Origin: Pseudarthrobacter siccitolerans
GTDB taxonomy: Bacteria; Actinomycetota; Actinomycetes; Actinomycetales; Micrococcaceae
Direction of reading: 5' to 3'
Assembly (NCBI RefSeq): GCF_030823375.1
Contig: NZ_JAUSXB010000001.1
Span: 558,001 to 622,000 of the forward strand
DNA length: 64,000 bases
Shown: positions 32,056 to 41,772 of the stretch, piece by piece
Layout: every line of letters starts with the position of its first letter
Position numbering within the stretch: the stretch's first letter is position 1
Position numbers and translations under genes: made by a program
Notes under the pieces: model-generated
Seen by the model: only the letters and a program-made list of their open reading frames with translations
Databases searched by the model: none
What the model was told of the DNA's origin: nothing

Positions 32056-33336
32056 ATGTCGATGCATCCCCGCTACCCTGCGTCCGGACCGCCTGAAGAT
32101 CCCTTCCGGGGCGGCGGGACCCCGCTCCCTCGCGAAGCCAACCCCACCTGGATGGGCCAGGTGCAGCCTGGCAACTACCGCTCGGCCCCCGGGCACCAGG
32201 GTCATCCAGTGGATGCCTTCGTGCCGCCCGGGGTTCAAGGCAGCGCTGTCAGGGCCGGCCGGGTCCGGAGCGGGAGCCTTGTTGCGCTGACCATCGGCGG
32301 CAGTGCCCTGGCCTTCCTTAGCCTCTTCCTGGTGGTCCCGTTCCTGTTGTCGAACATAGGCGCGGCGGGGTTCCTGATAGGTTTCCTTGCTTCGCTGATC
32401 CCCTTGTCGGTAGTCCTCCTGACTGTCCACGTCATCGATAAATGGGAACCCGAGCCAAAGCGCCTCCTGTTCTTCGCCTTCACGTGGGGCGCGGCCGTGT
32501 CCATCGCAGTTACCCTGCTGATCCAGCCGTTTTTTGTCCTGGGCTTCCAGTTTTCCGATGAAGCGGACCTGCAGACCTTCATGGCCACGGTCCAGGCGCC
32601 GATCGTGGAGGAGTTCGCCAAATCCCTGGGGCTGCTGCTCCTGTTGTTGCTGGCCAGGCGGCACTTTGACGGGCCCGTTGACGGGGTGGTTTTCGCCTTC
32701 ACCATTGCCGGCGGCTTCGCCTTCACCGAGAACATCCTGTACTTCGGCAGGGCCATCGCCGAATCGGCAGACCCGGCCGGCGATTTCGCCCAGGTGTTTT
32801 TCCTCCGCGGCGTGATGTCGCCCTTCGCCCATGCGATCTTCACGGGCACCACCGGGCTGGTCATGGGGTTCGCCGCCCGCCGCGGAGGTACCGGCGTCGC
32901 GGTGGCAGCCTTTGTCCTGGGGCTGCTGCCGGCCATGTTCCTGCACAACAGGTGGAACAGCATGGGCCAGGGCTTCCTGGTGGACTACATCCTGGTCCAG
33001 GTTCCCATCTTCTTCCTGGCCGTGGCCGGCATCATCCTGCTGCGGGTGGCGGAGAAGCGCCTGACCCGCCAACGCCTGCTCGAATACTCCGCGGCCGGCT
33101 GGTTCACCCCTGCCGAGGTGGAGCTCCTCGCCACCTTCGGCGGCCGCCGCACTGCACTCCGCTGGGCGGGCAGCTACGGCAGGAAGCGGCAGATGAAGGA
33201 ATTCACGAAAGCCGCCACTCAGCTGGCCAACACGCGGCAGCGCATCCTCAGCGGCCGTGACGTGCAGCTGCACCAGGCTGAGGAGCGCCAGCAGCTGCAG
33301 CGCATCCTGGCCTTGCGGGCCGCCGTCGCGCGTTAA
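32056..33336 (+). CDS. PrsW-family intramembrane metalloprotease
   Basis: The 426-residue protein has a Pro-rich cytoplasmic N-terminus (about 1-70), eight or more membrane helices, and the PrsW/CPBP-type motifs: EEFAKS (EExxK type) at about 195, FAFTENILYF, and HAIFTGTTGLVMG. These residues form the metal site in glutamic-type membrane proteases. A soluble C-terminal tail of about 90 residues follows. PrsW in Bacillus cleaves an anti-sigma factor; no such partner lies nearby, so the target is unknown. It is convergent with the catabolic operon at 33360. Confidence 0.85.
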   Translation: MSMHPRYPASGPPEDPFRGGGTPLPREANPTWMGQVQPGNYRSAPGHQGHPVDAFVPPGVQGSAVRAGRVRSGSLVALTIGGSALAFLSLFLVVPFLLSNIGAAGFLIGFLASLIPLSVVLLTVHVIDKWEPEPKRLLFFAFTWGAAVSIAVTLLIQPFFVLGFQFSDEADLQTFMATVQAPIVEEFAKSLGLLLLLLLARRHFDGPVDGVVFAFTIAGGFAFTENILYFGRAIAESADPAGDFAQVFFLRGVMSPFAHAIFTGTTGLVMGFAARRGGTGVAVAAFVLGLLPAMFLHNRWNSMGQGFLVDYILVQVPIFFLAVAGIILLRVAEKRLTRQRLLEYSAAGWFTPAEVELLATFGGRRTALRWAGSYGRKRQMKEFTKAATQLANTRQRILSGRDVQLHQAEERQQLQRILALRAAVAR

Positions 33337-33359: not shown

Positions 33360-34199
33360 CTACCGGCGGACGGCACTCTCCGTTGACAGCAATAGTGCCT
33401 CATCCAGCACTTTTCCGAAGTTTGCGGCATCGTGGGCAAACCTGCCCAGGAAGAGCCCCGAAACACCGGCCAGCGTGGGCAGGAGTCCTGGTTTTGCCGA
33501 GCCGCCATAAATGACCGGCAGGCTTTGCAGCGTTACTCCCGCCTCCGCTTCATTGGCGCCAAGCAGCACGCGGAGCGAACGCACTACCGCGGACACGTAG
33601 TCGGCGCTGGCCGGTTCTGCTGCCCCAATGGCCCAGACGGGCTCGTAAGCGATGATGAGCCGGGATGCCGCCTTCCAGTCACCGCCTACCGCGTCCTTGA
33701 TTTGCTGGTGGACGAAACCGGCTGCCGCTGCTGCGCCGGCTTCTGTCATGTCACCGCAGGTTTCCTCACCGACGCACAGCAGTGGAGTCATCCCTGCGGC
33801 ATCTGCTGCCAGGACCTTGCGTGCGATCACCGTGCTGTCTTCGCCGAAATGCCGGCGCCGTTCGGCGTGCCCGATTTCTACGAGGCTTACTCCGAGCTCT
33901 GCCAGGAGGGAAGGTGATACCTCCCCTGTCCAGGGACCGTCAGCCCAACCGCAGTTTTGGGCGCCCAGCAACACCGGCGAGCCGGAAAGGAGCTGTGCCG
34001 CAGCGGGCAGGACGGGGAACGACGGGATGACAAACGGGACAACCCGCCCGGCCGCGAGGGCCGGACGGGTGTCCACTTCGTGCCGCAGCCGCTCCAGCCA
34101 GTCCAGGCTGTCCCGGTAACCGAGGTACATCTTGGTGCTGACCCCGACGTACACGGTGTTGGTCAGGGCCGGTACCCTTCCGGGACTGCCTTCAGGCAC
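33360..34199 (-). CDS. TIM-like isomerase, probable L-erythrulose-1-phosphate isomerase (LerI/EryH type)
   Basis: The 279-residue protein is a triosephosphate isomerase paralogue. The catalytic Lys23 (VSTKMYLG), His111 (EIGHAERRRHFGED) and Glu186 (IIAYEPVWAIGA) are kept, but the NWKMN box of true TPI is changed so that the Asn is Ser and the Trp is Thr. That loss and the operon context argue against glycolytic TPI and for the C4 enzyme that converts L-erythrulose 1-phosphate to D-erythrulose 4-phosphate (LerI of Mycobacterium, EryH of Brucella). It is the last gene of the operon, 9 bases after the transporter gene. The GTG at 34199 is the likely start, without a strong SD. Confidence 0.8.
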   Translation of the reverse strand: MPEGSPGRVPALTNTVYVGVSTKMYLGYRDSLDWLERLRHEVDTRPALAAGRVVPFVIPSFPVLPAAAQLLSGSPVLLGAQNCGWADGPWTGEVSPSLLAELGVSLVEIGHAERRRHFGEDSTVIARKVLAADAAGMTPLLCVGEETCGDMTEAGAAAAAGFVHQQIKDAVGGDWKAASRLIIAYEPVWAIGAAEPASADYVSAVVRSLRVLLGANEAEAGVTLQSLPVIYGGSAKPGLLPTLAGVSGLFLGRFAHDAANFGKVLDEALLLSTESAVRR

Positions 34200-34208
34200 G
34201 GGAGGCGC

Positions 34209-35561
34209 TCATTTGGTGTCGAGCAGGTCGTCCGCCTTGTTGCGGAACCGCTTGGTGGCGTACATCATGATGGCGGCCAGGAATGGCAGCACGCCCAGGG
34301 CAAAGACGCCTGCGGAGCCGGTTGAGTCAGCCGCGATCCCGTTGACGCTGGTGCGCAGGATGGGCGCAACAAAGCCGCCGAGGTTTCCGAGCGAGTTGAT
34401 CAGGCCGATGCCTGCAGCTGCGGCCGTGCCCGTGAGGAACGCCGTGGGGTAGGACCACGCGATGGGGCCGATGGAGAGGAAGCTGCACACGGCCAGGGTG
34501 ATGAACATGATGCCGAGCGCCGGGAGGTGGTTGGTGCCGGCCCAGGCCGAACCGAAGATGCAGAGGCCCGTGGAGATGAAGAGCCCGGTGCCCCAGACCC
34601 GGCGGCGGACCAGGGTGTTGGCGGCCTTGCCGATGAAGTAGCAAGCAAAGATGCCGAAGAACCACGGGATGGCTGCCATCAGGCCGACGGCGAGGCCCAC
34701 CTTTTGGCCGGTCAGCTGCGCCACCTGCTGCGGCAGGTAGAACGTGACACCGTAAACGGCGATCTGCAGGCAGAAGTAGATGATGGTGAAGTACCAGACC
34801 TTGCCGTTCCTCATGGCCGCAAGGACGCCGCGGGGGCCGGTCTCTTCCTTCACCGTGTCCTCCAGCGCCATGACTTCCAGGAGCGCGCCCTTTTCGTCCT
34901 TGTTCAGGAACTTGGCGTCCTGCGGGCTGTTGATCAGGAAGAAGTATGCGGCGATGCCGGCCACCACTGCGAGCATGCCCTCGACGAAGAACATAACCTG
35001 CCAGCCCTGGACTCCGGGCACCTGGTCGCCGATGTTGATCAGCCAGCCGGACAGCGGTGCGCCCATCATTTGGGAGAAGGGCTGGGCCAGGTAGAAAATG
35101 GCGAACATCTTCACACGGACCTTGTTGGGAAACCACGCCGCCAGGAACATGATGACGCCCGGGAACAGCCCTGCCTCGGTGACGCCCAGCAGGAACCGCA
35201 GGATGATGAACGATGTCTCGCCCTGGACAAACGCGAAGCAGGCGGACACGATGCCCCAGGTGATGGCGATGCGGGCGAGCCACACCTTCGCCCCGAACTT
35301 GGTCAGGAGCAGGTTGCTCGGAATTTCGAACAGGGCGTAGCCGATGAAGAAGATTCCGGCGCCGAGGGCGAAGGCTCCGGCGCTAATACCTTTGTCGACC
35401 CCAAGGGCCGCTTCGGAGAAGCCCACGTTGGTGCGGTCCAGGAAGGCGACCACATAAAGGATCACCAGCATGGGCATAAGCCGGCGGGAAGCCTTGGAAA
35501 TCGCCGATTTCAGGACCGGCGAGTCCAGAAGCTCCTTGGTGGATGTTGCGGATAGGGACAT
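34209..35561 (-). CDS. MFS transporter, anion:cation symporter (ACS) type
   Basis: The 450-residue protein has twelve hydrophobic segments and ACS-family motifs: LDRTNVGFSEAALG in the first helix pair, RFLLGVTEAGLFPGVIMFLAAWFP in helices 4-5 (split as RFLLGVTEAGLFPG), and GVTFYLPQQV. ACS members such as GudP, phthalate and tartrate permeases mostly take up organic acids with protons. This suggests that the operon's substrate is a sugar acid rather than a neutral polyol. I start it at the ATG at 35561, with AGAGGAG seven bases upstream, not at 35618. Confidence 0.88.
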   Translation of the reverse strand: MSLSATSTKELLDSPVLKSAISKASRRLMPMLVILYVVAFLDRTNVGFSEAALGVDKGISAGAFALGAGIFFIGYALFEIPSNLLLTKFGAKVWLARIAITWGIVSACFAFVQGETSFIILRFLLGVTEAGLFPGVIMFLAAWFPNKVRVKMFAIFYLAQPFSQMMGAPLSGWLINIGDQVPGVQGWQVMFFVEGMLAVVAGIAAYFFLINSPQDAKFLNKDEKGALLEVMALEDTVKEETGPRGVLAAMRNGKVWYFTIIYFCLQIAVYGVTFYLPQQVAQLTGQKVGLAVGLMAAIPWFFGIFACYFIGKAANTLVRRRVWGTGLFISTGLCIFGSAWAGTNHLPALGIMFITLAVCSFLSIGPIAWSYPTAFLTGTAAAAGIGLINSLGNLGGFVAPILRTSVNGIAADSTGSAGVFALGVLPFLAAIMMYATKRFRNKADDLLDTK

Positions 35562-35607
35562 CAAAAACTCCTCTTTGAGTACATCAGATGCATGGGGTGC
35601 TGGGTTT

Positions 35608-35772
35608 CTAGAGCGCAAGCGCGATCATCATGGCTCCCGCAATGCAGGCAACGATGCCTACGGCGAGGTAGATCCGGCGTGCCCGGCTCCAGGACCCGGT
35701 GGTTTGGGCTGGTATTGCTGACGGGGGCCGCGCGGGTGAGAGCCGCGCCGGCCGGTTGCTGTTCTGTGCCAA
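35608..35772 (-). CDS. 54-residue single-helix membrane protein
   Basis: A TTG at 35772 follows AAGGAAGG by six bases and opens a 54-codon frame. The product starts MAQNSNRPARLSPARPPSAI, has a basic stretch SRARR at 30-33, and ends in one hydrophobic helix (about 34-54) with a single Cys. It is placed between the SDR and the transporter. It may be a small partner of the transporter, but I know no family. The strong SD and operon position argue that it is translated. Confidence 0.55.
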   Translation of the reverse strand: MAQNSNRPARLSPARPPSAIPAQTTGSWSRARRIYLAVGIVACIAGAMMIALAL

Positions 35773-35784
35773 GGCTGGCCTTCC

Positions 35785-36552
35785 TTAATGCATGTACAGT
35801 CCGCCGTCCACATTCAGCGTCTGGCCGGAGATGTATCCGGCGTCCTCGCTGATGAGGAAGGCGATGGCTGCTGCGATGTCCCGCGTGGACCCGACCCGGT
35901 TGACCACGAGGTCCTTCGTCAGTTCGTCCTTGCGTTCCTGGCTGAGGGTGCCGCCCATGATGTCCGTGTCGATCGGGCCGGGGGAGATGGCGTTGACGGT
36001 GATGTCGTACTCCCCCAGTTCCCTGGCCGTGGAGCGGGTCAGGCCGATGACGCCGGCCTTCGCCACGGAGTAAGGCGTTTTGGAGTACGTGCCGCCGCCG
36101 CGCTGGGCTGAGACGGAGGAGATGTTGACGATCCGCCCGATCCGGTTCTTCACCATGGACTCGGCCACCCGGCGGGTGGCGTAGTGGACGCCGTTGAGGT
36201 TGATGTTCAGAACGCGGTCCCATTCGGCCGCGTCCAGTTCCAGGTAGGGAACGGGGGAACTGACACCGGCAACGTTGGCCAGGGCCACGATCTGGGGCAG
36301 CGCAGCTTCCAGCTCGTCGATGGCGGCCCGTACCTCCGCCTCGCTGGCGACGTTTGCACCAGCGCCGTGAGCCTGGGCGCCGTACTCGGCGGCGATCTCC
36401 TTGGCCGCGAGCTGACAGGCAGCGTCATCGAGGTCGATGATGCCGATGTTCCAGCCCTGGGCGGCCAGGTAGTTGGCGGTAGCGCGGCCGATGCCGCGCT
36501 CGGAAACTGCACCGGTAACAATGGCGGTGCGCTGTGCGGGAAAACTGCTCAT
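35785..36552 (-). CDS. Short-chain dehydrogenase/reductase, possibly a polyol or sugar-acid dehydrogenase
   Basis: The 255-residue classical SDR has the TGAVSERGIGR cofactor loop, LANVAGV, catalytic Ser146 in NISSVSA, and YSVAK with Tyr161 and Lys165. Asp41 after the second strand (GIIDLDD) favours NAD over NADP. Relatives include D-threitol dehydrogenase of Mycobacterium and other polyol dehydrogenases. In this operon it could oxidise a C4 or C5 polyol or sugar acid, or supply an epimerising oxidation. The ATG at 36552 has AGGAGC six bases upstream. The frame upstream to 36633 is not used. Confidence 0.85.
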   Translation of the reverse strand: MSSFPAQRTAIVTGAVSERGIGRATANYLAAQGWNIGIIDLDDAACQLAAKEIAAEYGAQAHGAGANVASEAEVRAAIDELEAALPQIVALANVAGVSSPVPYLELDAAEWDRVLNINLNGVHYATRRVAESMVKNRIGRIVNISSVSAQRGGGTYSKTPYSVAKAGVIGLTRSTARELGEYDITVNAISPGPIDTDIMGGTLSQERKDELTKDLVVNRVGSTRDIAAAIAFLISEDAGYISGQTLNVDGGLYMH

Positions 36553-36580
36553 GGTTGCTCCTGGGGAAAGATGGAAGGTG

Positions 36581-37573
36581 CTAGCTGATGGGCGCGGGGC
36601 CGAGGTCTTCAATGAGCTTTTGCATGGCGACATAGGCCTTGTTGCGGTAGGCGATCAGCTCGGGTGTGCGCTCTGCCGGGACGTTGAGGAAACCCGCTCC
36701 GGTCTTGGTGCCGAGTTTTCCGGCCTCCACCAGGTCGGTGAGGATCTTCGGCGTTGCGAAGCGCTCGGGGAAGTCGGTCTGCAGGGACTTGTAGCAGAAG
36801 TTGTACACGTCCAGCCCGGCCATGTCCGCAATCGCGAACGGTCCGAAGAAGGGCAACCGGAAGCCGAAGGTGGTGCGGACCAGGGTGTCCACGTCATCCG
36901 CCGTCGCGATGCCCTGCTCCACCAGCTGCGCGGCTTCGTGGAACAGCGCGTACTGCAGGCGGTTGAGCACGAAGCCGGTGACGTCCTTGACTACAGCTGT
37001 CTGCTTGCCCGCGGCATGGACCAGGTCGCGTACGATGCCGACAGTAGCTGCCGAGGTCCCGGCGTGCGGGATGATTTCCACGCCGGGGATGAACGGTGAC
37101 GGGTTGGAGAAGTGCACGCCCAGGAACCGTTCCGGGTTTGTCACCGGCTCGGACAGTTCGGCGATGGAGATGGTGGAGGTGTTGGAGCCGATGATGGCGT
37201 CCGGCCTGGCGGCGGCGCTGATGCGGGCCAGGGTCTGGTGCTTGATGGCGATGACTTCGGGGACGGCTTCCTCGATGAAATCCGCGTCCGCCACGGCCTC
37301 CTCGATGTCCTTGGCGGCCCACAGGTTCTGCTTCAGGATTTCGGTGGAACCCTCCGGGAAAAGGCCGTCGGCAACAAACTGGTCCGATTCCGCGAGGAGT
37401 CGTTCATAGTTGCTTTGTGCCACCTCGGCCGACACGTCTGCGAGTGCCACTCGTGCCCCGCCGAGGGCCAGGACCTGGGCGATCCCGCCGCCCATGTAGC
37501 CGGACCCGACGACGGCGATCCTGCGGCCGCTGTTTGCATCCGCTGCGGCGGGGGTGCTTGTTGTTTCGCTCAT
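36581..37573 (-). CDS. 3-hydroxyacyl-CoA dehydrogenase-family protein of lambda-crystallin/L-gulonate type
   Basis: The 330-residue protein has the Rossmann motif VVGSGYMGGGIAQ (23-28 for GSGYMG), catalytic His154 in GVHFSNP and Glu166 in IPGVEIIPH, and a C-terminal 3HCDH domain (TGFVLNRLQYALFHEA, FGFRLPFFGPF). The NPxxxIPxVEIIPH pattern resembles L-gulonate 3-dehydrogenases, which oxidise C3 of a free sugar acid, more than CoA enzymes. No thiolase or enoyl-CoA hydratase is nearby, so fatty-acid oxidation is unlikely. I propose that it oxidises the beta-hydroxyl of a C5 sugar acid to a 3-keto acid. It lies two bases after the RpiB-type gene. Confidence 0.8.
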   Translation of the reverse strand: MSETTSTPAAADANSGRRIAVVGSGYMGGGIAQVLALGGARVALADVSAEVAQSNYERLLAESDQFVADGLFPEGSTEILKQNLWAAKDIEEAVADADFIEEAVPEVIAIKHQTLARISAAARPDAIIGSNTSTISIAELSEPVTNPERFLGVHFSNPSPFIPGVEIIPHAGTSAATVGIVRDLVHAAGKQTAVVKDVTGFVLNRLQYALFHEAAQLVEQGIATADDVDTLVRTTFGFRLPFFGPFAIADMAGLDVYNFCYKSLQTDFPERFATPKILTDLVEAGKLGTKTGAGFLNVPAERTPELIAYRNKAYVAMQKLIEDLGPAPIS

Positions 37574-37575
37574 GT

Positions 37576-38058
37576 TCAGACTGCCTTTGTGTAATCGGGT
37601 TCGTAGGAGCAGATGGCGTCCACCTTGGCGGCGGAGGCTGAGGTTTCGTCGAAACGGTAGTCAAGCCATTCGCCCACCAGTTTCTTGGCCAGTTCAAGGC
37701 CGATGACGCGCTGGCCCATGGTGAGGACCTGGGCGTTGTTGCTCAGGACGGAGCGCTCAACGGAGTATCCGTCGTGGGCGGTGACAGCACGAATGCCGGG
37801 CACCTTGTTGGCGGCGATGGCGACGCCCAGACCGGTGCCGCAGATCAGCAGGGCACGGTCCGCCTCGCCCTCGGCCACTTTCCGGGCAGCATCGACGGCG
37901 ACATGCGGGTACGCGGTCGTGTCGTTCGCACCGACGCCGACGTCCAGGACGGACGCCACGCGCCCATCTGCCTCCAGCAGCGCCTTCAACGCATCTTTGT
38001 ATTCAACACCGGCTTCGTCGTTGCCGACGACGATGCGCCAGCCTTCGTTTGTGGTCAT
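37576..38058 (-). CDS. RpiB/LacAB-type isomerase, probable D-erythrulose-4-phosphate isomerase (DerI/EryI type)
   Basis: The 160-residue product has the RpiB fold motifs: [14 protein letters not shown] in place of the usual GxDHAG, and [20 protein letters not shown] with the catalytic Cys73. RpiB interconverts ribulose and ribose 5-phosphates; the paralogues DerI and EryI convert D-erythrulose 4-phosphate to D-erythrose 4-phosphate. The neighbouring kinase and TIM-like isomerase favour the latter role. The ATG overlaps the kinase stop by 4 bases (ATGA). Confidence 0.85.
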
Positions 38059-39812
38059 GCTGGGACTCCGTTTCCGGCCGCAGCGGCCAGGTCTGAATCG
38101 GCGGTCAGTTGTAAATCGATGTAGTGCGAGATCCGGGCGGCGATCAGTCCGAAGGAGACAGCACCGGGATCGGGGTGGCCGAGGCTCTTTTCCGCCAGCG
38201 GGCGCGCCCTGCCCTTCAGGGGCCGCAGCCCGGCCGTCCGGGATGCCGCGGACTCAGCTGCCGCGGCGGCTGCCGCCAAGGCCCTGTCGACGGGAGCTCC
38301 GCCCTTGAGCTCTGCCAGGAATGCGTCCCGGAACGGAAGCAGTGCGTCCACCATCGTTTTGTCCCCGGCGTCGGCCTTGCCGAGTTCGGTGATTGCGCCG
38401 GCGAAGGCCTTCACCGCGGCGGCCGCGTCGGAGGCGTTGTAGCTTTCCTTATTGCCGAGTGCATGGCCGGTTGCGATGACGGCGGAGCCCCAGAGTGCGC
38501 CGGAGGTACCACCAGCGCGTTCACTCCAGGCCTCCCCGGCAACGGCCAGGATCCGGGCCACCGATGAACCGGACGCAGCTTCGGCCGCTGCGGCCGCGGC
38601 CTCCACACCGCGCCGCATTCCGATGCCGTGGTCACCATCCCCTGCGATTGCGTCCAGCTTGCCGAGTTCCTCTTCATGCTCGACGACGACGTCCCGCACC
38701 TGGGCGAGGACCCCCACGGCTTGCCGGCCGAGCTCCGCCGCTGCGGGGGCGGGCTGTTCGACATCGGCCGTTTCGGCGTCGTCGATCTCCGCCTTGGCGC
38801 GGGGTGCCCGCGGCGTCATGCTCCCCTTGCGGAAAGCCGCCGTGTCGGCGGGAGCGGCCCAGTACTGTTCGAGTTCCCCGTCCAGCCAGAGCAGGGTGAG
38901 GGACAGCCCGGACATGTCCAGGCTGGTGACCAGCTCGCCGCACTCCGGTTCAACCACAGTCAGGCCGGCGGCGGTGAGGAGCTTTTCGATCTTTCCGAAG
39001 AGCAGGAACAGCTCGTCGTACTTCACTGTCCCCAAGCCGTTGACGATTGCCACTACGCGGTCGCCGGCGTCTTCCGGTTTGTCGTTGAGGAGCTTCGAGA
39101 CCAGGAGTTCGGCGAGCTCTGAGGCGGTGGGCATGGGGTGCTCGGAGATTCCGGGCTCGCCGTGGATGCCCAGGCCCAGCGACATCTGGCCGGACGGGAC
39201 GTGGAACAGCGGATCGCTGGCGCCGGGAAGCGTGCAGCCGTCAAACGCCACGCCGAGTGAACGCGTGCGGTGGTTGGTCTTGATGGCCAGCCGCTCGACG
39301 TCGTCAAGGTTCAGGCCTGCTTCCGCGGCAGCACCGGCGACCTTGAAAACCGTCAGGTCCCCGGCGATGCCGCGCCGTTTCTCGAGCTGGTCGATGGGTG
39401 CGCTGGCAATGTCGTCGGTCACGGTGACCGTGCGGGTTTCGATGCCCTCGGCGTTGAGCCGGAGCTGGGCCTGGCCGAAGTGCAGGACATCGCCGGCGTA
39501 GTTGCCGTAGCTGAGCAGCACCCCGCCACCGGCGTTCGCCGCCTTGGCCACGCGGTAGACCTGTCCGGCCGCGGGCGAGGCGAACATGTTGCCGCAGGCC
39601 GCAGCGGTGGCAAGGCCGGGGCCCACCAGGCCGGAGAAGGCGGGGTAATGTCCGGAACCGCCGCCTACCACCAGGGCCACCTGGCCGGCCGGAACTTCGG
39701 TGGAGCGGACCACTCCGCCGTCCACCCGGGCTACATATCCCCGGTTGGCTGCCACAAAGCCGTCGAGTGCTTCATCCGCAAAGTTGGCGGGGTTGTCAAA
39801 GATCTGGGTCAT
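38055..39812 (-). CDS. Fused DhaK-DhaL dihydroxyacetone-type kinase, probable erythrulose kinase (LerK-like)
   Basis: The 585-residue protein joins DhaK (about 1-330), which binds the ketose through His217 in [10 protein letters not shown] and has [14 protein letters not shown] at 49-60, to DhaL (about 360-575), which binds ATP and Mg through the aspartates in [11 protein letters not shown] (387, 392, 394) and [11 protein letters not shown] single-chain ATP enzyme like this does not need the PTS protein DhaM, and no DhaM is nearby. LerK of Mycobacterium smegmatis has this layout and phosphorylates L-erythrulose. Dihydroxyacetone is an alternative substrate, but the two isomerases point to the C4 sugar. 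Confidence 0.88.
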
Positions 39813-39871
39813 GGTTCCTCATTGAATCCTTGGTGGTGGAGCGGTATCCGGGTTCCAGCGCCCGGCTGCAG

Positions 39872-40888
39872 TCAGACGGTGCTGAGTTCAGGGGTGGACG
39901 GCTGCTGCCGCCCCTGGGCCACCTGGCTCCGGCCAAGTGCGTAGCCGTCCGTCTTCGGGAGCACATGGCGGCGCAGGTATTCCTGGTTGCTGGCGGTCAC
40001 GCTGAGGCCGTCCCCGCCGTAGTGCTCGGTGCAGAGGATGCCCTGGAAGCCAACGGAGAGGGCAAGCTTGAAGGCCTCACGGTAGTTGATGAGGCCGTTT
40101 TCCATCGGAGCCGGCATCGTGACGTACACGTCGCGGGCCACGTCCTCGTCCCGGATGTAGTTCTTCATATGCCAGTAGTTGGAGTAGGGCAGGGTCTTCG
40201 CCACCATCTCGCGCCAGTCCTCGATGGGCCGGTGGAGCCGGATCAGGTTGCCGAGATCGGGGTTGAGTCCAACGTTGGCCAGCCCGATGTCCTGGACCAG
40301 CCGCACAGATGCATCCGCGGTGCCAAGGTAGGTGTCTTCGTACATTTCGAGCGAGAGGAGGATGCCTACCTCTGCGGCGTGCCGGCCAAGCTCGCGGAGG
40401 CGGGAGACTGCATTGTTCCACGCTTCCTTGTCCCCCACCGGATCCTTGTGACCTTCGACCGTCCAGAACCACAGCTGCTTTTGCTGCTCGGGCGTGATGG
40501 CCTGGTGGAGTCCGAATGACACAACCTCGCAGCCCAGTTCCGCAGCAGCATCGATGGTGCGGTGGCTGTAGGCAAGATTGGCTTCCCAGTTGCCTTCCTC
40601 GATGACGCTGCGGCGGATTGCAGAGATGACCGGTGTGCCGATGCCCACCTCTTCGGCTGTCTGCTTGAACTCGGCAAGGCGATCCTTGCCGAGGTCGCCC
40701 GGACGGACCCAACTGTCAGTGAGGTCCGCGTTCGCGAACCCCGCTTCTTTTACCTCAGTCAGCACTTCGGCCCATACGGAAGGTTCTGCCTCATTGACGT
40801 GCACTCCGGCGGCGTCGGTAGAGGGGAACTGCAGCAACGCTGCTGTGATCGGCCAGTTGTCTGCTGTATAGCTCAAGTGTCTGCTCAT
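39872..40888 (-). CDS. Xylose-isomerase-like TIM-barrel protein, OiaC-like decarboxylase candidate
   Basis: The 338-residue protein has the four metal ligands of the AP_endonuc_2/xylose-isomerase-like barrel: Glu181 (LSLEMYED), Asp211 (LNPDLGN), His240 (NYWHMKN) and Glu288 (CTEHYGGDG). The family includes isomerases, epimerases and OiaC, which decarboxylates 3-oxo-isoapionate to L-erythrulose. The downstream kinase and isomerases use erythrulose, so a decarboxylase producing it fits well. An isomerase or epimerase role is the main alternative. It is the first catabolic gene after the GntR gene and carries a CCTATAGG operator before its ATG. Confidence 0.75.
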   Translation of the reverse strand: MSRHLSYTADNWPITAALLQFPSTDAAGVHVNEAEPSVWAEVLTEVKEAGFANADLTDSWVRPGDLGKDRLAEFKQTAEEVGIGTPVISAIRRSVIEEGNWEANLAYSHRTIDAAAELGCEVVSFGLHQAITPEQQKQLWFWTVEGHKDPVGDKEAWNNAVSRLRELGRHAAEVGILLSLEMYEDTYLGTADASVRLVQDIGLANVGLNPDLGNLIRLHRPIEDWREMVAKTLPYSNYWHMKNYIRDEDVARDVYVTMPAPMENGLINYREAFKLALSVGFQGILCTEHYGGDGLSVTASNQEYLRRHVLPKTDGYALGRSQVAQGRQQPSTPELSTV

Positions 40889-40903
40889 TTCGTGGATCGT
40901 CTT

Positions 40904-40913
40904 TCCTATAGGA
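40904..40913. promoter_or_regulatory. GntR operator upstream of the catabolic operon
   Basis: TCCTATAGGA is a 10-bp perfect palindrome 16 bases before the first catabolic gene. The core CCTATAGG recurs at 41763-41770 before the GntR gene, in the context AAATCCTATAGG at both sites. It fits a dimeric GntR/FCD repressor. Confidence 0.7.
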
Positions 40914-40932
40914 TTTACTATCGAGGAAATGT

Positions 40933-40938
40933 TGTCAA
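40933..40938 (-). promoter_or_regulatory. Consensus -35 hexamer of the catabolic operon
   Basis: TTGACA stands on the minus strand 19 bases upstream of the palindrome. No clear -10 at 17 bases is seen; TAAATC or the operator itself is a candidate. The layout would let a bound repressor block the polymerase. Confidence 0.4.
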
Positions 40939-41025
40939 GATCACGTTGTTAGAGGAGGGTGTCGGAGAGGAGCGCCAGCCGTGCGGGGTGGTTTTTCGAT
41001 TTCCGGGTTCAGGCTTGAGGCCGGT

Positions 41026-41754
41026 TCAACTTTCCGGGGCGGCGGCGATCGCCCTCGACCGCACTTGTTGAATGTGCGCCGCCATGGCTGCTTCTGCTTC
41101 ACCGGGATCACCGGCGGAGATAGCCTTCAGGACGGCTTCATGCTCGGCTATGGCGCATTCCGCGTCAGTGATGCCTACTCCCCCGAAAAGCCGGAACCGC
41201 TGGACCTGGCCGCCGAGAGCCGAATACGCGGCTTCCATGAACTGGTTTCCGGTCTGCCGCGCAATGAGCTGGTGAAACCGCTCGTCGGCCTCCAGATAGT
41301 CTTTGAAGTCGGCGAAGGCCGGTCCCCGCGGAGCGGACTTCAAGTCCCGAACGGCCTTTTTCAGCTCCGCCAGGCCTCCTTTGTCCATGCGTTCGCAGGC
41401 AAGCCGGGCGTTGACCGGCTCGATGGCCAGCCTTGCCTCCATCAGTTCGGCAAAGTCCTCACGGGTGAAGACCGGGGCCACCCGGTAGCCTTTGAGCGCC
41501 ACCCGGCGGACCATTCCGGTGTGCTCCAGCCGGGCAAGCGCTTCGCGGACCGGCGTCGGTGAAACGTCGAGGTCCCTGGCAGTTCCGTCGATGCTGACTA
41601 CCGACCCCGGCGCCAGACGGCCATCCATGAGGGACGCCAGGAGCTCGGTGTAAACGTGATCAGCCAGCACCTGGCGGTTTACAGCGCGGCCGGAACGGCG
41701 GGAAGCCACCTGGTCCGGTGGAGTGGCATCAGTGCTGCCGGAGGCTTTCTGCAT
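41026..41754 (-). CDS. GntR-family (FCD) transcriptional repressor of the catabolic operon
   Basis: The 242-residue protein has an N-terminal winged HTH (VYTELLASLMDGRLAPGS, DLDVSPTPVREALARLEHTG) and a C-terminal FCD helical ligand-binding domain (ELMEARLAIEPVNARLACER, DERFHQLIARQTGN, EHEAVLKAISAGDPGEAEAAM). FCD regulators often bind organic or sugar acids through a metal; the ligand is probably the operon's substrate or an intermediate. Its own promoter overlaps a CCTATAGG palindrome, which implies autoregulation. The ATG starts about 8 bases after the likely -10, so the mRNA may be leaderless. Confidence 0.88.
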   Translation of the reverse strand: MQKASGSTDATPPDQVASRRSGRAVNRQVLADHVYTELLASLMDGRLAPGSVVSIDGTARDLDVSPTPVREALARLEHTGMVRRVALKGYRVAPVFTREDFAELMEARLAIEPVNARLACERMDKGGLAELKKAVRDLKSAPRGPAFADFKDYLEADERFHQLIARQTGNQFMEAAYSALGGQVQRFRLFGGVGITDAECAIAEHEAVLKAISAGDPGEAEAAMAAHIQQVRSRAIAAAPES

Positions 41755-41760
41755 GGTTAA

Positions 41761-41772
41761 ATCCTATAGGGT
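41761..41772. promoter_or_regulatory. GntR operator and -10 region of the GntR gene
   Basis: ATCCTATAGGGT contains the same CCTATAGG core as 40905-40912. On the minus strand TATAGG can serve as the -10, with GTCAAC about 17-18 bases upstream as the -35. Repressor binding here would shut off the regulator's own transcription. Confidence 0.65.

What the first reader, a model, noticed from the sequence alone, without database searches (positions are those of the whole stretch)
33360..41772. Operon that probably turns a C5 sugar acid into erythrulose and then into D-erythrose 4-phosphate
Seen: nine same-strand genes with short gaps or overlaps: GntR/FCD, xylose-isomerase-like barrel, DhaK-DhaL, RpiB-type, lambda-crystallin-type dehydrogenase, SDR, 54-aa membrane protein, ACS transporter, TIM-like isomerase. 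Known: LerK, LerI and DerI turn L-erythrulose into D-erythrose 4-phosphate (threitol/erythritol use in Mycobacterium smegmatis and the D-apionate pathway), and OiaC releases L-erythrulose from 3-oxo-isoapionate. Inferred: the acid transporter plus a C3-oxidising dehydrogenase plus an OiaC-like protein form a beta-oxidative decarboxylation route that feeds the pentose phosphate pathway. The substrate is unassigned. This is the best candidate here for an undescribed pathway.
Basis: partly seen in the sequence, partly recalled or inferred. Interest (0 to 1): 0.8.

Follow-up and report, generated by a model that had tools for sequence, protein, structure and literature searches.

The report
Sugar-acid to erythrose-4-phosphate operon
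A soil bacterium carries a conserved set of genes that probably oxidises and decarboxylates a five-carbon sugar acid to the four-carbon sugar erythrulose and feeds it into central metabolism; nothing here has been assayed and the exact acid is unknown.

Summary
The nine-gene operon is real (33360-41754, minus strand). The kinase/isomerase trio is of the L-erythrulose type (LerK, LerI, DerI), apart from this genome's canonical DhaK, TIM and RpiB. The genome also holds a separate, recognisable D-apionate locus with its own trio, OiaC candidate and ApnO, so this operon looks like another entry into the same module. In one genome a single trio lies with both entry pairs (L205). Across genomes the barrel protein (XI) and, mostly, the trio stay, while dehydrogenases (3HCDH, PdxA, isocitrate-type) and transporters (MFS, GntP, TctABC) are exchanged. 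That fits 3-hydroxy acid -> 3-oxo acid -> decarboxylation by XI -> L-erythrulose -> D-erythrose 4-phosphate. XI belongs to the family of PDB 5TNV (no stated function) and is only remotely related to OiaC. A conserved operator, TCCTATAGGA, was found. Unproven: substrate, XI chemistry, SDR role. Corrections: the dehydrogenase is not nearest to lambda-crystallin; XI is not an OiaC orthologue. New variant of a known kind.

The parts
41026..41754 (-). GntR/FCD regulator, 242 aa
   Evidence: Pfam GntR + FCD; in 66 same-strand GntR-barrel loci the motif CTATAG lies upstream of one or both genes in 65
41763..41770 (.). Operator CCTATAGG, 9-16 nt upstream of the GntR start
   Evidence: CCTATAGG occurs twice in the 64-kb window; YCCTATAGGA at two places in 4.5 Mb, both here
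40905..40912 (.). Operator (core of TCCTATAGGA), 17-24 nt upstream of the barrel gene start
   Evidence: sequence
39872..40888 (-). Xylose-isomerase-like TIM barrel (XI), 338 aa: proposed 3-oxo-acid decarboxylase giving L-erythrulose
38055..39812 (-). DhaK-DhaL fusion kinase, 585 aa: proposed L-erythrulose 1-kinase (LerK)
   Evidence: Dak1 + Dak2; [10 protein letters not shown] motif shared with apionate- and threitol-type loci, GHEP in the canonical DhaK; tree
37576..38058 (-). [quoted passage not shown]
   Evidence: LacAB_rpiB; TIGR02133 over cut-off, DerI model NF051858 155 of 240 bits; 46% to the R. etli apiose-locus RpiB, 51% over 108 aa to the erythritol-locus RpiB, 30% to the RpiB that I take as housekeeping
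36581..37573 (-). 3-hydroxyacyl-CoA-dehydrogenase-family protein, 330 aa: proposed 3-dehydrogenase of the sugar acid
   Evidence: PF02737 + PF00725; closest solved relative 4OM8; in 76 of 76 named loci counted
35785..36552 (-). SDR, 255 aa: accessory entry dehydrogenase, role open
   Evidence: adh_short_C2; 63 of 76 named loci; at the mycobacterial loci only distant SDR hits (30-34%) away from the 3HCDH gene
35608..35772 (-). 54-aa single-span membrane peptide, conserved, function unknown
34209..35561 (-). MFS (D-galactonate-transporter-like), 450 aa: proposed sugar-acid importer
   Evidence: MFS_1; TIGR00893 255.5 bits, below its cut-off of 395
33360..34199 (-). [quoted passage not shown]
   Evidence: PF00121; 190 bits against a cut-off of 293 for true TIM; GVSTKM in place of the canonical GNWKM; tree

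Best explanation
The operon imports a sugar acid, most likely a C5 aldonate (or a branched C5 acid), through the MFS symporter. The 3HCDH-type enzyme oxidises its C3 hydroxyl to a 3-oxo acid. The metal-dependent barrel protein XI decarboxylates this to L-erythrulose. The LerK-type kinase makes L-erythrulose 1-phosphate, the TIM-like LerI makes D-erythrulose 4-phosphate, and the RpiB-like DerI makes D-erythrose 4-phosphate for the pentose phosphate pathway. The GntR/FCD protein controls the operon through TCCTATAGGA-type sites in front of itself and of XI. Shown: anatomy, conservation, the conserved motif at both promoters, and family placement of the trio. Inferred: every reaction, the C5 size, the L-configuration, decarboxylation by XI, and binding of the motif by the GntR protein. 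The SDR may supply a second C3 stereospecificity or a pre-step; this is open.
For: (1) Kinase, TIM and RpiB are of the tetrulose type. Kinase motif GHYPAF in 43 of 47 rows; GHEP in the genome's canonical DhaK and in the R. etli DhaK; 2 rows not matched by the pattern. TIM has Ser two residues before the catalytic Lys in 38 of 41 rows, Gly in 1, Asn in the canonical, 1 not readable. On the three trees (kinase, TIM, RpiB) XI- and apionate-linked rows mix (fewest label changes 8/3, 8/3 and 7/3 for 3HCDH-type and apionate; well-supported branches force 5/1, 5/2 and 2/1), with the canonical proteins on long outside branches. (2) The genome's recognisable apionate locus L047 has the same trio with ApnO + OiaC candidate in place of 3HCDH + XI; 20 of 20 fetched OiaC-candidate loci have ApnO, 14 of 20 DhaKL. 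(3) L205 carries HIBDH, DUF1537, 3HCDH, SDR, XI, then OiaC, ApnO and one DhaKL, RpiB, TIM set, with the operator before XI, before DhaKL and before a GntR gene. (4) Dehydrogenase exchange: of 18 class-scan neighbourhoods, 3HCDH in 11, PdxA in 3, isocitrate-type in 1, none recognised in 3, both 3HCDH and PdxA in 0. Streptomyces L007 has instead a protein 56% identical to the threonate-dehydrogenase-like one of L046. PdxA-type loci L055, L056 and L066 have the operator too. (5) Transporters change among MFS, GntP and TctABC. (6) A second copy in the genome keeps XI 85%, DhaKL 81%, RpiB 88%, 3HCDH 89%, while SDR (54%), TIM (45%) and MFS (40%) diverge. (7) In E. coli, LerI + DerI with LerK and EltD let L-threitol or erythritol replace erythrose 4-phosphate supplements (PMC10733421, passages).
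Confidence: 0.66

Rival explanations
1. XI is a ketose 3-epimerase or isomerase (for example D-/L-erythrulose 3-epimerase). The 3-oxo acid made by 3HCDH or PdxA loses CO2 spontaneously or by PdxA itself, and XI only corrects the tetrulose to the L-form for LerK.
For: Outside 5TNV, ketose 3-epimerases are among the nearest solved structures by fold and profile, one of them solved with L-erythrulose (5H1W). PdxA-type dehydrogenases replace 3HCDH in 3 of 18 loci and need no decarboxylase (recalled).
Against: XI holds the place that the OiaC candidate holds in apionate loci. 3HCDH enzymes do not decarboxylate (recalled) and no other decarboxylase candidate is in the operon. Profile similarity to the OiaC candidates (E 3.5e-13 over 229 columns) includes E-x-Y-E, which the four epimerase chains aligned lack (they have E-VLNR-FE there).
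Confidence: 0.15
2. A four-carbon acid (threonate or erythronate) is oxidised at C3 and decarboxylated to dihydroxyacetone, and DhaKL and TIM make DHAP and GAP.
For: DhaKL and TIM family names fit. Threonate-dehydrogenase-like and DUF1537 kinase genes lie beside the second copy and some relatives.
Against: It leaves RpiB unexplained. The kinase motif and tree placement are apart from the canonical DhaK, and the TIM is not a true TIM. The genome already has a canonical TIM and a separate DhaK.
Confidence: 0.06
3. A six-carbon acid such as L-gulonate is taken through 3-dehydro-L-gulonate to L-xylulose, as in the animal pathway; the kinase and isomerases serve something else.
For: L-gulonate 3-dehydrogenase is a 3HCDH protein, and animals decarboxylate 3-dehydro-L-gulonate to L-xylulose (PMC12435205, passages).
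Against: The animal decarboxylase is DUF1907, a different family from XI. The usual partners are tetrulose-type enzymes. No pentulose kinase family is in the operon.
Confidence: 0.06
4. It is simply a threitol/erythritol pathway, with 3HCDH or SDR as the polyol dehydrogenase and XI as an isomerase.
For: In M. smegmatis the LerK/LerI/DerI module was described for L-threitol and erythritol (Huang 2015, recalled; cited in passages of PMC10733421).
Against: The importers are of acid-transporter families. 3HCDH and PdxA are hydroxy-acid enzymes. A separate threitol-like locus (L048) is in the same genome.
Confidence: 0.05

Closest known systems
Oxidative D-apionate pathway with OiaC (ApnO, OiaC, LerK, LerI, DerI; Carter 2018, recalled, paper not held)
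   Same: Same logic and same downstream trio; a barrel protein next to a 3-oxo-acid-forming enzyme; trees mix
   Different: ApnO (PGDH_C family) is replaced by 3HCDH; OiaC by a remote relative with a longer chain; the CTATAG operator motif is absent from L047; the genome has a separate apionate locus (L047)
L-threitol/erythritol utilisation of Mycobacterium smegmatis (EltD, LerK, LerI, DerI; Huang 2015, recalled, paper not held)
   Same: Same trio. 5TNV (M. smegmatis) is 95% identical over 299 aa to a mycobacterial XI whose neighbours are DhaKL, RpiB, TIM and 3HCDH
   Different: No acid-oxidising or decarboxylating step in that pathway; XI and 3HCDH not part of it as far as I recall
L-gulonate 3-dehydrogenase / 3-dehydro-L-gulonate decarboxylase of animals
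   Same: 3HCDH oxidation at C3 then decarboxylation to a ketose
   Different: C6 acid, different decarboxylase family (DUF1907), product L-xylulose
D-threonate / L-threonate / D-erythronate pathways (DUF1537 kinase, PdxA2, LtnD, OtnC; recalled)
   Same: PdxA-type and threonate-dehydrogenase-like enzymes and DUF1537 kinases occur beside related loci
   Different: Those end in DHAP and phosphorylate before decarboxylation; they have no XI, LerI or DerI (recalled)
Ketose 3-epimerases (D-psicose, D-tagatose)
   Different: Low identity (13-18%), operon context

Membership tests
L-erythrulose module (LerK, LerI, DerI) | Kinase, TIM-like and RpiB-like genes together, each distinct from the canonical paralogue | tested here: met
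L-erythrulose module (LerK, LerI, DerI) | RpiB scores over the curated DerI model cut-off (NF051858) | tested here: not met
   155 of 240 bits; the apionate-locus RpiB of the same genome also misses it (141 bits), R. etli passes (258 bits); by its name (EryPhIsonDerIRhiz) the model is of the rhizobial branch
L-erythrulose module (LerK, LerI, DerI) | Enzyme activities on L-erythrulose and its phosphates | not testable with these tools
   needs assays
OiaC (3-oxo-isoapionate decarboxylase) | Orthology: close sequence kin next to ApnO | tested here: not met
   17-20% identity to the OiaC candidates; no ApnO in the operon; a separate OiaC candidate in L047. The candidates themselves are named by context, not by a characterised sequence
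OiaC (3-oxo-isoapionate decarboxylase) | Shared active-site pattern (E-x-Y-E, D-x-x-N, H-x-K, final E-H) | tested here: inconclusive
   seen in both alignments, but D-x-x-N is also in UlaE and Art22
D-apionate oxidative pathway | ApnO (PF16896) in the locus | tested here: not met
   seen only at L047 among the loci of this genome that I annotated
Lambda-crystallin / L-gulonate 3-dehydrogenase | Closest kin within the 3HCDH family | tested here: not met
   4OM8 and several HBDH rank above it among solved structures
5TNV family (xylose-isomerase-like, M. smegmatis) | Full-length sequence and fold match | tested here: met
Ketose 3-epimerase | Closest kin by sequence | tested here: inconclusive
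   only part of the chain matches in the profile search; fold shared
Triose-phosphate isomerase (housekeeping) | Score over curated TIM cut-off and GNWKM motif | tested here: not met
   190 of 293 bits; GVSTKM against GNWKM in the genome's canonical TIM

The most novel reading that the evidence does not exclude
There is a general route for L-series pentonates (best guess L-arabinonate or L-ribonate for the 3HCDH type, L-xylonate or L-lyxonate for the PdxA type): C3 oxidation by interchangeable dehydrogenases, decarboxylation by a new barrel decarboxylase family (type structure 5TNV) to L-erythrulose, and entry as D-erythrose 4-phosphate. It would be an alternative to the dehydratase (Weimberg/Dahms) routes, and the mycobacterial LerK/LerI/DerI cluster would serve sugar acids first and tetritols second.
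Probability: 0.35. Interest if true: 0.72.

Novelty: new variant of a known kind. Interest (0 to 1): 0.6.

Why it matters
If right, it gives a function to a barrel protein family with a solved structure but no function in its title (5TNV), explains a locus that recurs in Micrococcaceae, in the mycobacterial genus sampled, in other Actinobacteria and, in part, in rhizobia, and adds a decarboxylating 3-oxo-acid route for sugar acids. The substrate question becomes directly testable with a small panel of acids and two purified enzymes. The operator motif gives a ready reporter for finding the inducer.

Tried and rejected
Rejected: that the operon is the D-apionate pathway (no ApnO; a separate locus exists). 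Rejected as unlikely: the DHA/glycolysis reading. Considered and not decided: XI as epimerase. Motifs do not settle it, because D-x-x-N is also in UlaE and Art22 and 5TNV is only third against the OiaC profile.

Substrate hints that stay weak. L054 has an arabinofuranosidase-type gene right behind 3HCDH, with an ALO-type oxidase and an esterase near. L063 has a GH39 gene, an aldo/keto reductase and a sugar ABC transporter ahead of SDR-3HCDH-XI. These are two loci only; the few neighbours of other loci that I scanned (L061, L153, L155, L123, L126) gave no such hint. Stereochemical argument (recalled textbook): 3HCDH enzymes act on L-3-hydroxy acids, which among L-pentonates means arabinonate or ribonate. 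Not tested.

Operator control: in the own-genome search the pattern read backwards also had 3 strand-wise matches (2 + 1), as many as the pattern itself (1 + 2). So the count alone is at chance level; what speaks for the operator is its place in front of GntR and XI and its conservation. The 66 loci are mostly near kin from one named set.

Structure prediction of XI was mediocre (pLDDT 72; 12 rows, the 11 others 72-89% identical to the first); its matches are used only because 5TNV also matches by sequence. The sigma-70 scan gave one promoter-like site where shuffles give 0.9, and none upstream of XI or GntR. The three class-scan loci without a recognised dehydrogenase (L059, L065, L067) were not annotated gene by gene (three genes of L059 only), L067 begins close to a contig end, and L065 is a weak XI match (44%).

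Papers: Carter 2018 and Huang 2015 are not held, so their content is recalled, as are the threonate pathways. Searches for the pathway in print (open-licence papers only; listings) showed no description of it; this is not proof of absence. Passages only were read from PMC12435205, PMC10733421, PMC13296235, PMC12780249 and PMC11066805.

Rows dropped: L146 (stop in frame) and L127 from A2; L099, L107, L135, L147 from the 80-locus count (too little downstream). 18 of the 19 class-scan genomes were fetched as neighbourhoods (the 19th is the window's own), all 17 mycobacterial ones (15, 2), and 20 of 36 OiaC-positive genomes. Trees used the quick method without bootstrap; the tool flagged long branches. 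Group labels in the trees were set by me from the synteny calls. 'Canonical' for L049 (DhaK), L017 (TIM) and L022 (RpiB) is my reading from sequence and context.

Full report
What is there. The window is from a 4.5-Mb genome of two contigs; its named near relatives are mostly Arthrobacter, Pseudarthrobacter and Paenarthrobacter. On the minus strand lie GntR/FCD (41026-41754), a xylose-isomerase-like barrel (XI, 39872-40888), a DhaK-DhaL kinase (38055-39812), an RpiB-type isomerase (37576-38058), a 3HCDH-type dehydrogenase (36581-37573), an SDR (35785-36552), a 54-aa membrane peptide (35608-35772), an MFS transporter (34209-35561) and a TIM-like protein (33360-34199). Upstream is a gene that I take for nusB from reading the sequence (recalled, not scanned), followed by a terminator-like hairpin (one of seven such sites where shuffles give 6.5). 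Downstream is a convergent gene at 32209-33336.

The downstream trio. The genome has five DhaK, four TIM and five RpiB matches. The window's three are not the ones I take as canonical. The TIM scores 190 of 293 bits against the true TIM model and reads GVSTKM where the genome's best TIM reads GNWKM. The RpiB is 46% identical to the RpiB of the R. etli apiose locus, 51% over 108 aa to that of the R. leguminosarum erythritol locus, and 30% to the RpiB taken as housekeeping. The kinase has [10 protein letters not shown], as do 43 of 47 rows collected, itself included; the canonical DhaK and the R. etli DhaK have GHEP, and two rows did not match the pattern. Trees of all three families place the canonical proteins outside and mix XI-linked and apionate-linked rows, more firmly for kinase and TIM than for RpiB; the window's own kinase lies in a group of XI-linked rows only. 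LerK, LerI and DerI in this role are known: an engineered E. coli uses L-threitol and erythritol as a source of erythrose 4-phosphate with them and EltD (PMC10733421, passages).

A built-in comparison in the same genome. At C1:2.945 Mb (L047) lie GntR/FCD, MFS, DhaKL, RpiB, TIM, a 266-aa barrel and an ApnO-like PGDH_C protein. The ApnO-like protein is 42% identical to the one in the R. etli oiaX locus, and a 638-aa protein there is kin to that locus's 614-aa protein (26%, E 3e-39). I take this as the D-apionate pathway, with the 266-aa barrel as the OiaC candidate (names recalled). In 20 of 20 fetched OiaC-candidate neighbourhoods ApnO is present, and in 14 of 20 DhaKL too. The window operon therefore has the same trio behind a different entry pair. 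Most telling is L205 (genome G687): HIBDH, DUF1537, 3HCDH, SDR, XI, GntR, then OiaC, ApnO, DhaKL, RpiB, TIM in one locus with one trio.

A second copy. At C1:1.71 Mb (L046) the genome has XI (85%), DhaKL (81%), RpiB (88%) and 3HCDH (89%) again, with a diverged SDR (54%), MFS (40%) and TIM (45%, other strand), plus a threonate-dehydrogenase-like and a DUF1537 gene (both below their NCBIfam cut-offs). The conserved core and the diverged SDR + MFS suggest that SDR + MFS set the substrate entering a common core (inference).

Conservation and exchange. XI is found in 19 of 394 class genomes at E 1e-30, the window's own included, and in 17 of 198 genomes of G049's genus, which I read as Mycobacterium because 5TNV is 95% identical to one of its proteins. 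Of 80 named loci, 76 have enough downstream sequence, and 3HCDH is in 76 of 76. Of 18 class-scan neighbourhoods 11 have 3HCDH, 3 have PdxA, 1 has an isocitrate-type dehydrogenase, 3 show none to my queries, and none shows both 3HCDH and PdxA. Of 17 mycobacterial loci 17 have 3HCDH, DhaKL and TIM, and 13 have RpiB. Rhizobial plasmid loci have PdxA and TctABC beside XI and DhaKL (L006, L010), and so does a Paracoccus plasmid (L011). A Streptomyces plasmid has a GntP permease and a HIBDH-type protein (L007). Transporters seen are MFS, GntP or TctABC, with ABC types in L059 and L063. The exchangeable parts are hydroxy-acid dehydrogenases and mostly acid transporters; the constant part is XI, usually with the trio. 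This is the main reason to read the substrate as a sugar acid and the first step as oxidation of its 3-hydroxyl.

Mycobacterial link. In 16 of 17 mycobacterial genomes with XI exactly two TIM-type genes match at E 1e-10, and in 1 a single one; in 17 of 17 one of them lies at the XI locus. The M. smegmatis LerI described earlier is TIM-like (recalled), so it very probably lies beside XI and 3HCDH. If so, two neighbours of a known module have had no role assigned, as far as I know.

Regulation. CCTATAGG occurs twice in the window, in front of GntR and of XI. YCCTATAGGA occurs at only these two places in 4.5 Mb; the reversed control pattern is equally rare, so place and conservation carry the argument. 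In 66 loci with GntR and XI on one strand, CTATAG is upstream of one or both in 65 and of both in 59, against 0.044 expected per 450 nt. Upstream of XI at 23 further loci it is present in 5 (L055, L064, L066, L067, L158) and absent in 18, among them 8 of 9 mycobacterial and the three alphaproteobacterial loci. It occurs three times in L205, once before DhaKL. L055, L056 and L066 are PdxA-type, so 3HCDH- and PdxA-type loci can share the operator, which points to one kind of inducer (inference).

Limits. The acid, its configuration, the SDR, the DUF1537/HIBDH genes and the 54-aa peptide are unexplained. Ascorbate breakdown yields L-xylonate and L-lyxonate in plants (PMC11066805, passages), which makes L-pentonates plausible in soil, no more.

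Noticed in passing
own genome C1:1703000-1722900 (L046): Second copy of the operon core with different SDR and MFS, plus threonate-dehydrogenase-like and DUF1537 genes; no window-type GntR hit and no CCTATAGG in the 20 kb.
   Followed up: partly
own genome C1:2938000-2957900 (L047): Recognisable D-apionate locus with OiaC candidate and ApnO-like protein.
   Followed up: yes
own genome C1:3224000-3243900 (L048): Threitol-like locus: SDR, DhaKL, RpiB, a different barrel protein, sugar MFS and a split transketolase.
   Followed up: partly
window 40905-40912 and 41763-41770: Operator TCCTATAGGA / CCCTATAGGA at two places in the genome, conserved in relatives.
   Followed up: yes
window 35608-35772: Conserved 54-aa single-span membrane peptide between SDR and MFS.
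   Followed up: partly
L205 (genome G687): Both entry pairs (3HCDH/XI and ApnO/OiaC) with one LerK-DerI-LerI set and three operator sites.
   Followed up: yes
L054: Arabinofuranosidase-type gene directly behind 3HCDH, with an ALO-type oxidase and an esterase gene near: a hint at an arabinose-derived acid.
   Followed up: partly
L006/L009, Sinorhizobium meliloti pSymB: XI homologue (55%) with PdxA, TctABC, GntR and DhaKL beside the phn genes: a model organism in which the function could be tested.
   Followed up: partly
PDB 3QD5, 3SDW: These 'ribose-5-phosphate isomerase' entries match the window RpiB far better (about 203 bits) than the other RpiB structures listed (114 bits or less); they may be erythrulose-4-phosphate isomerases. 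I recall them as fungal.
   Followed up: no
L141, Halotalea alkalilenta: A Halomonadaceae genome with XI 73% identical to the window's, with 3HCDH and GntP: likely horizontal transfer.
   Followed up: no
L012, Klebsiella variicola plasmid: DhaKL, TIM, RpiB, transketolase, transaldolase, a barrel protein and a 2-hydroxyacid dehydrogenase on a conjugative plasmid.
   Followed up: no
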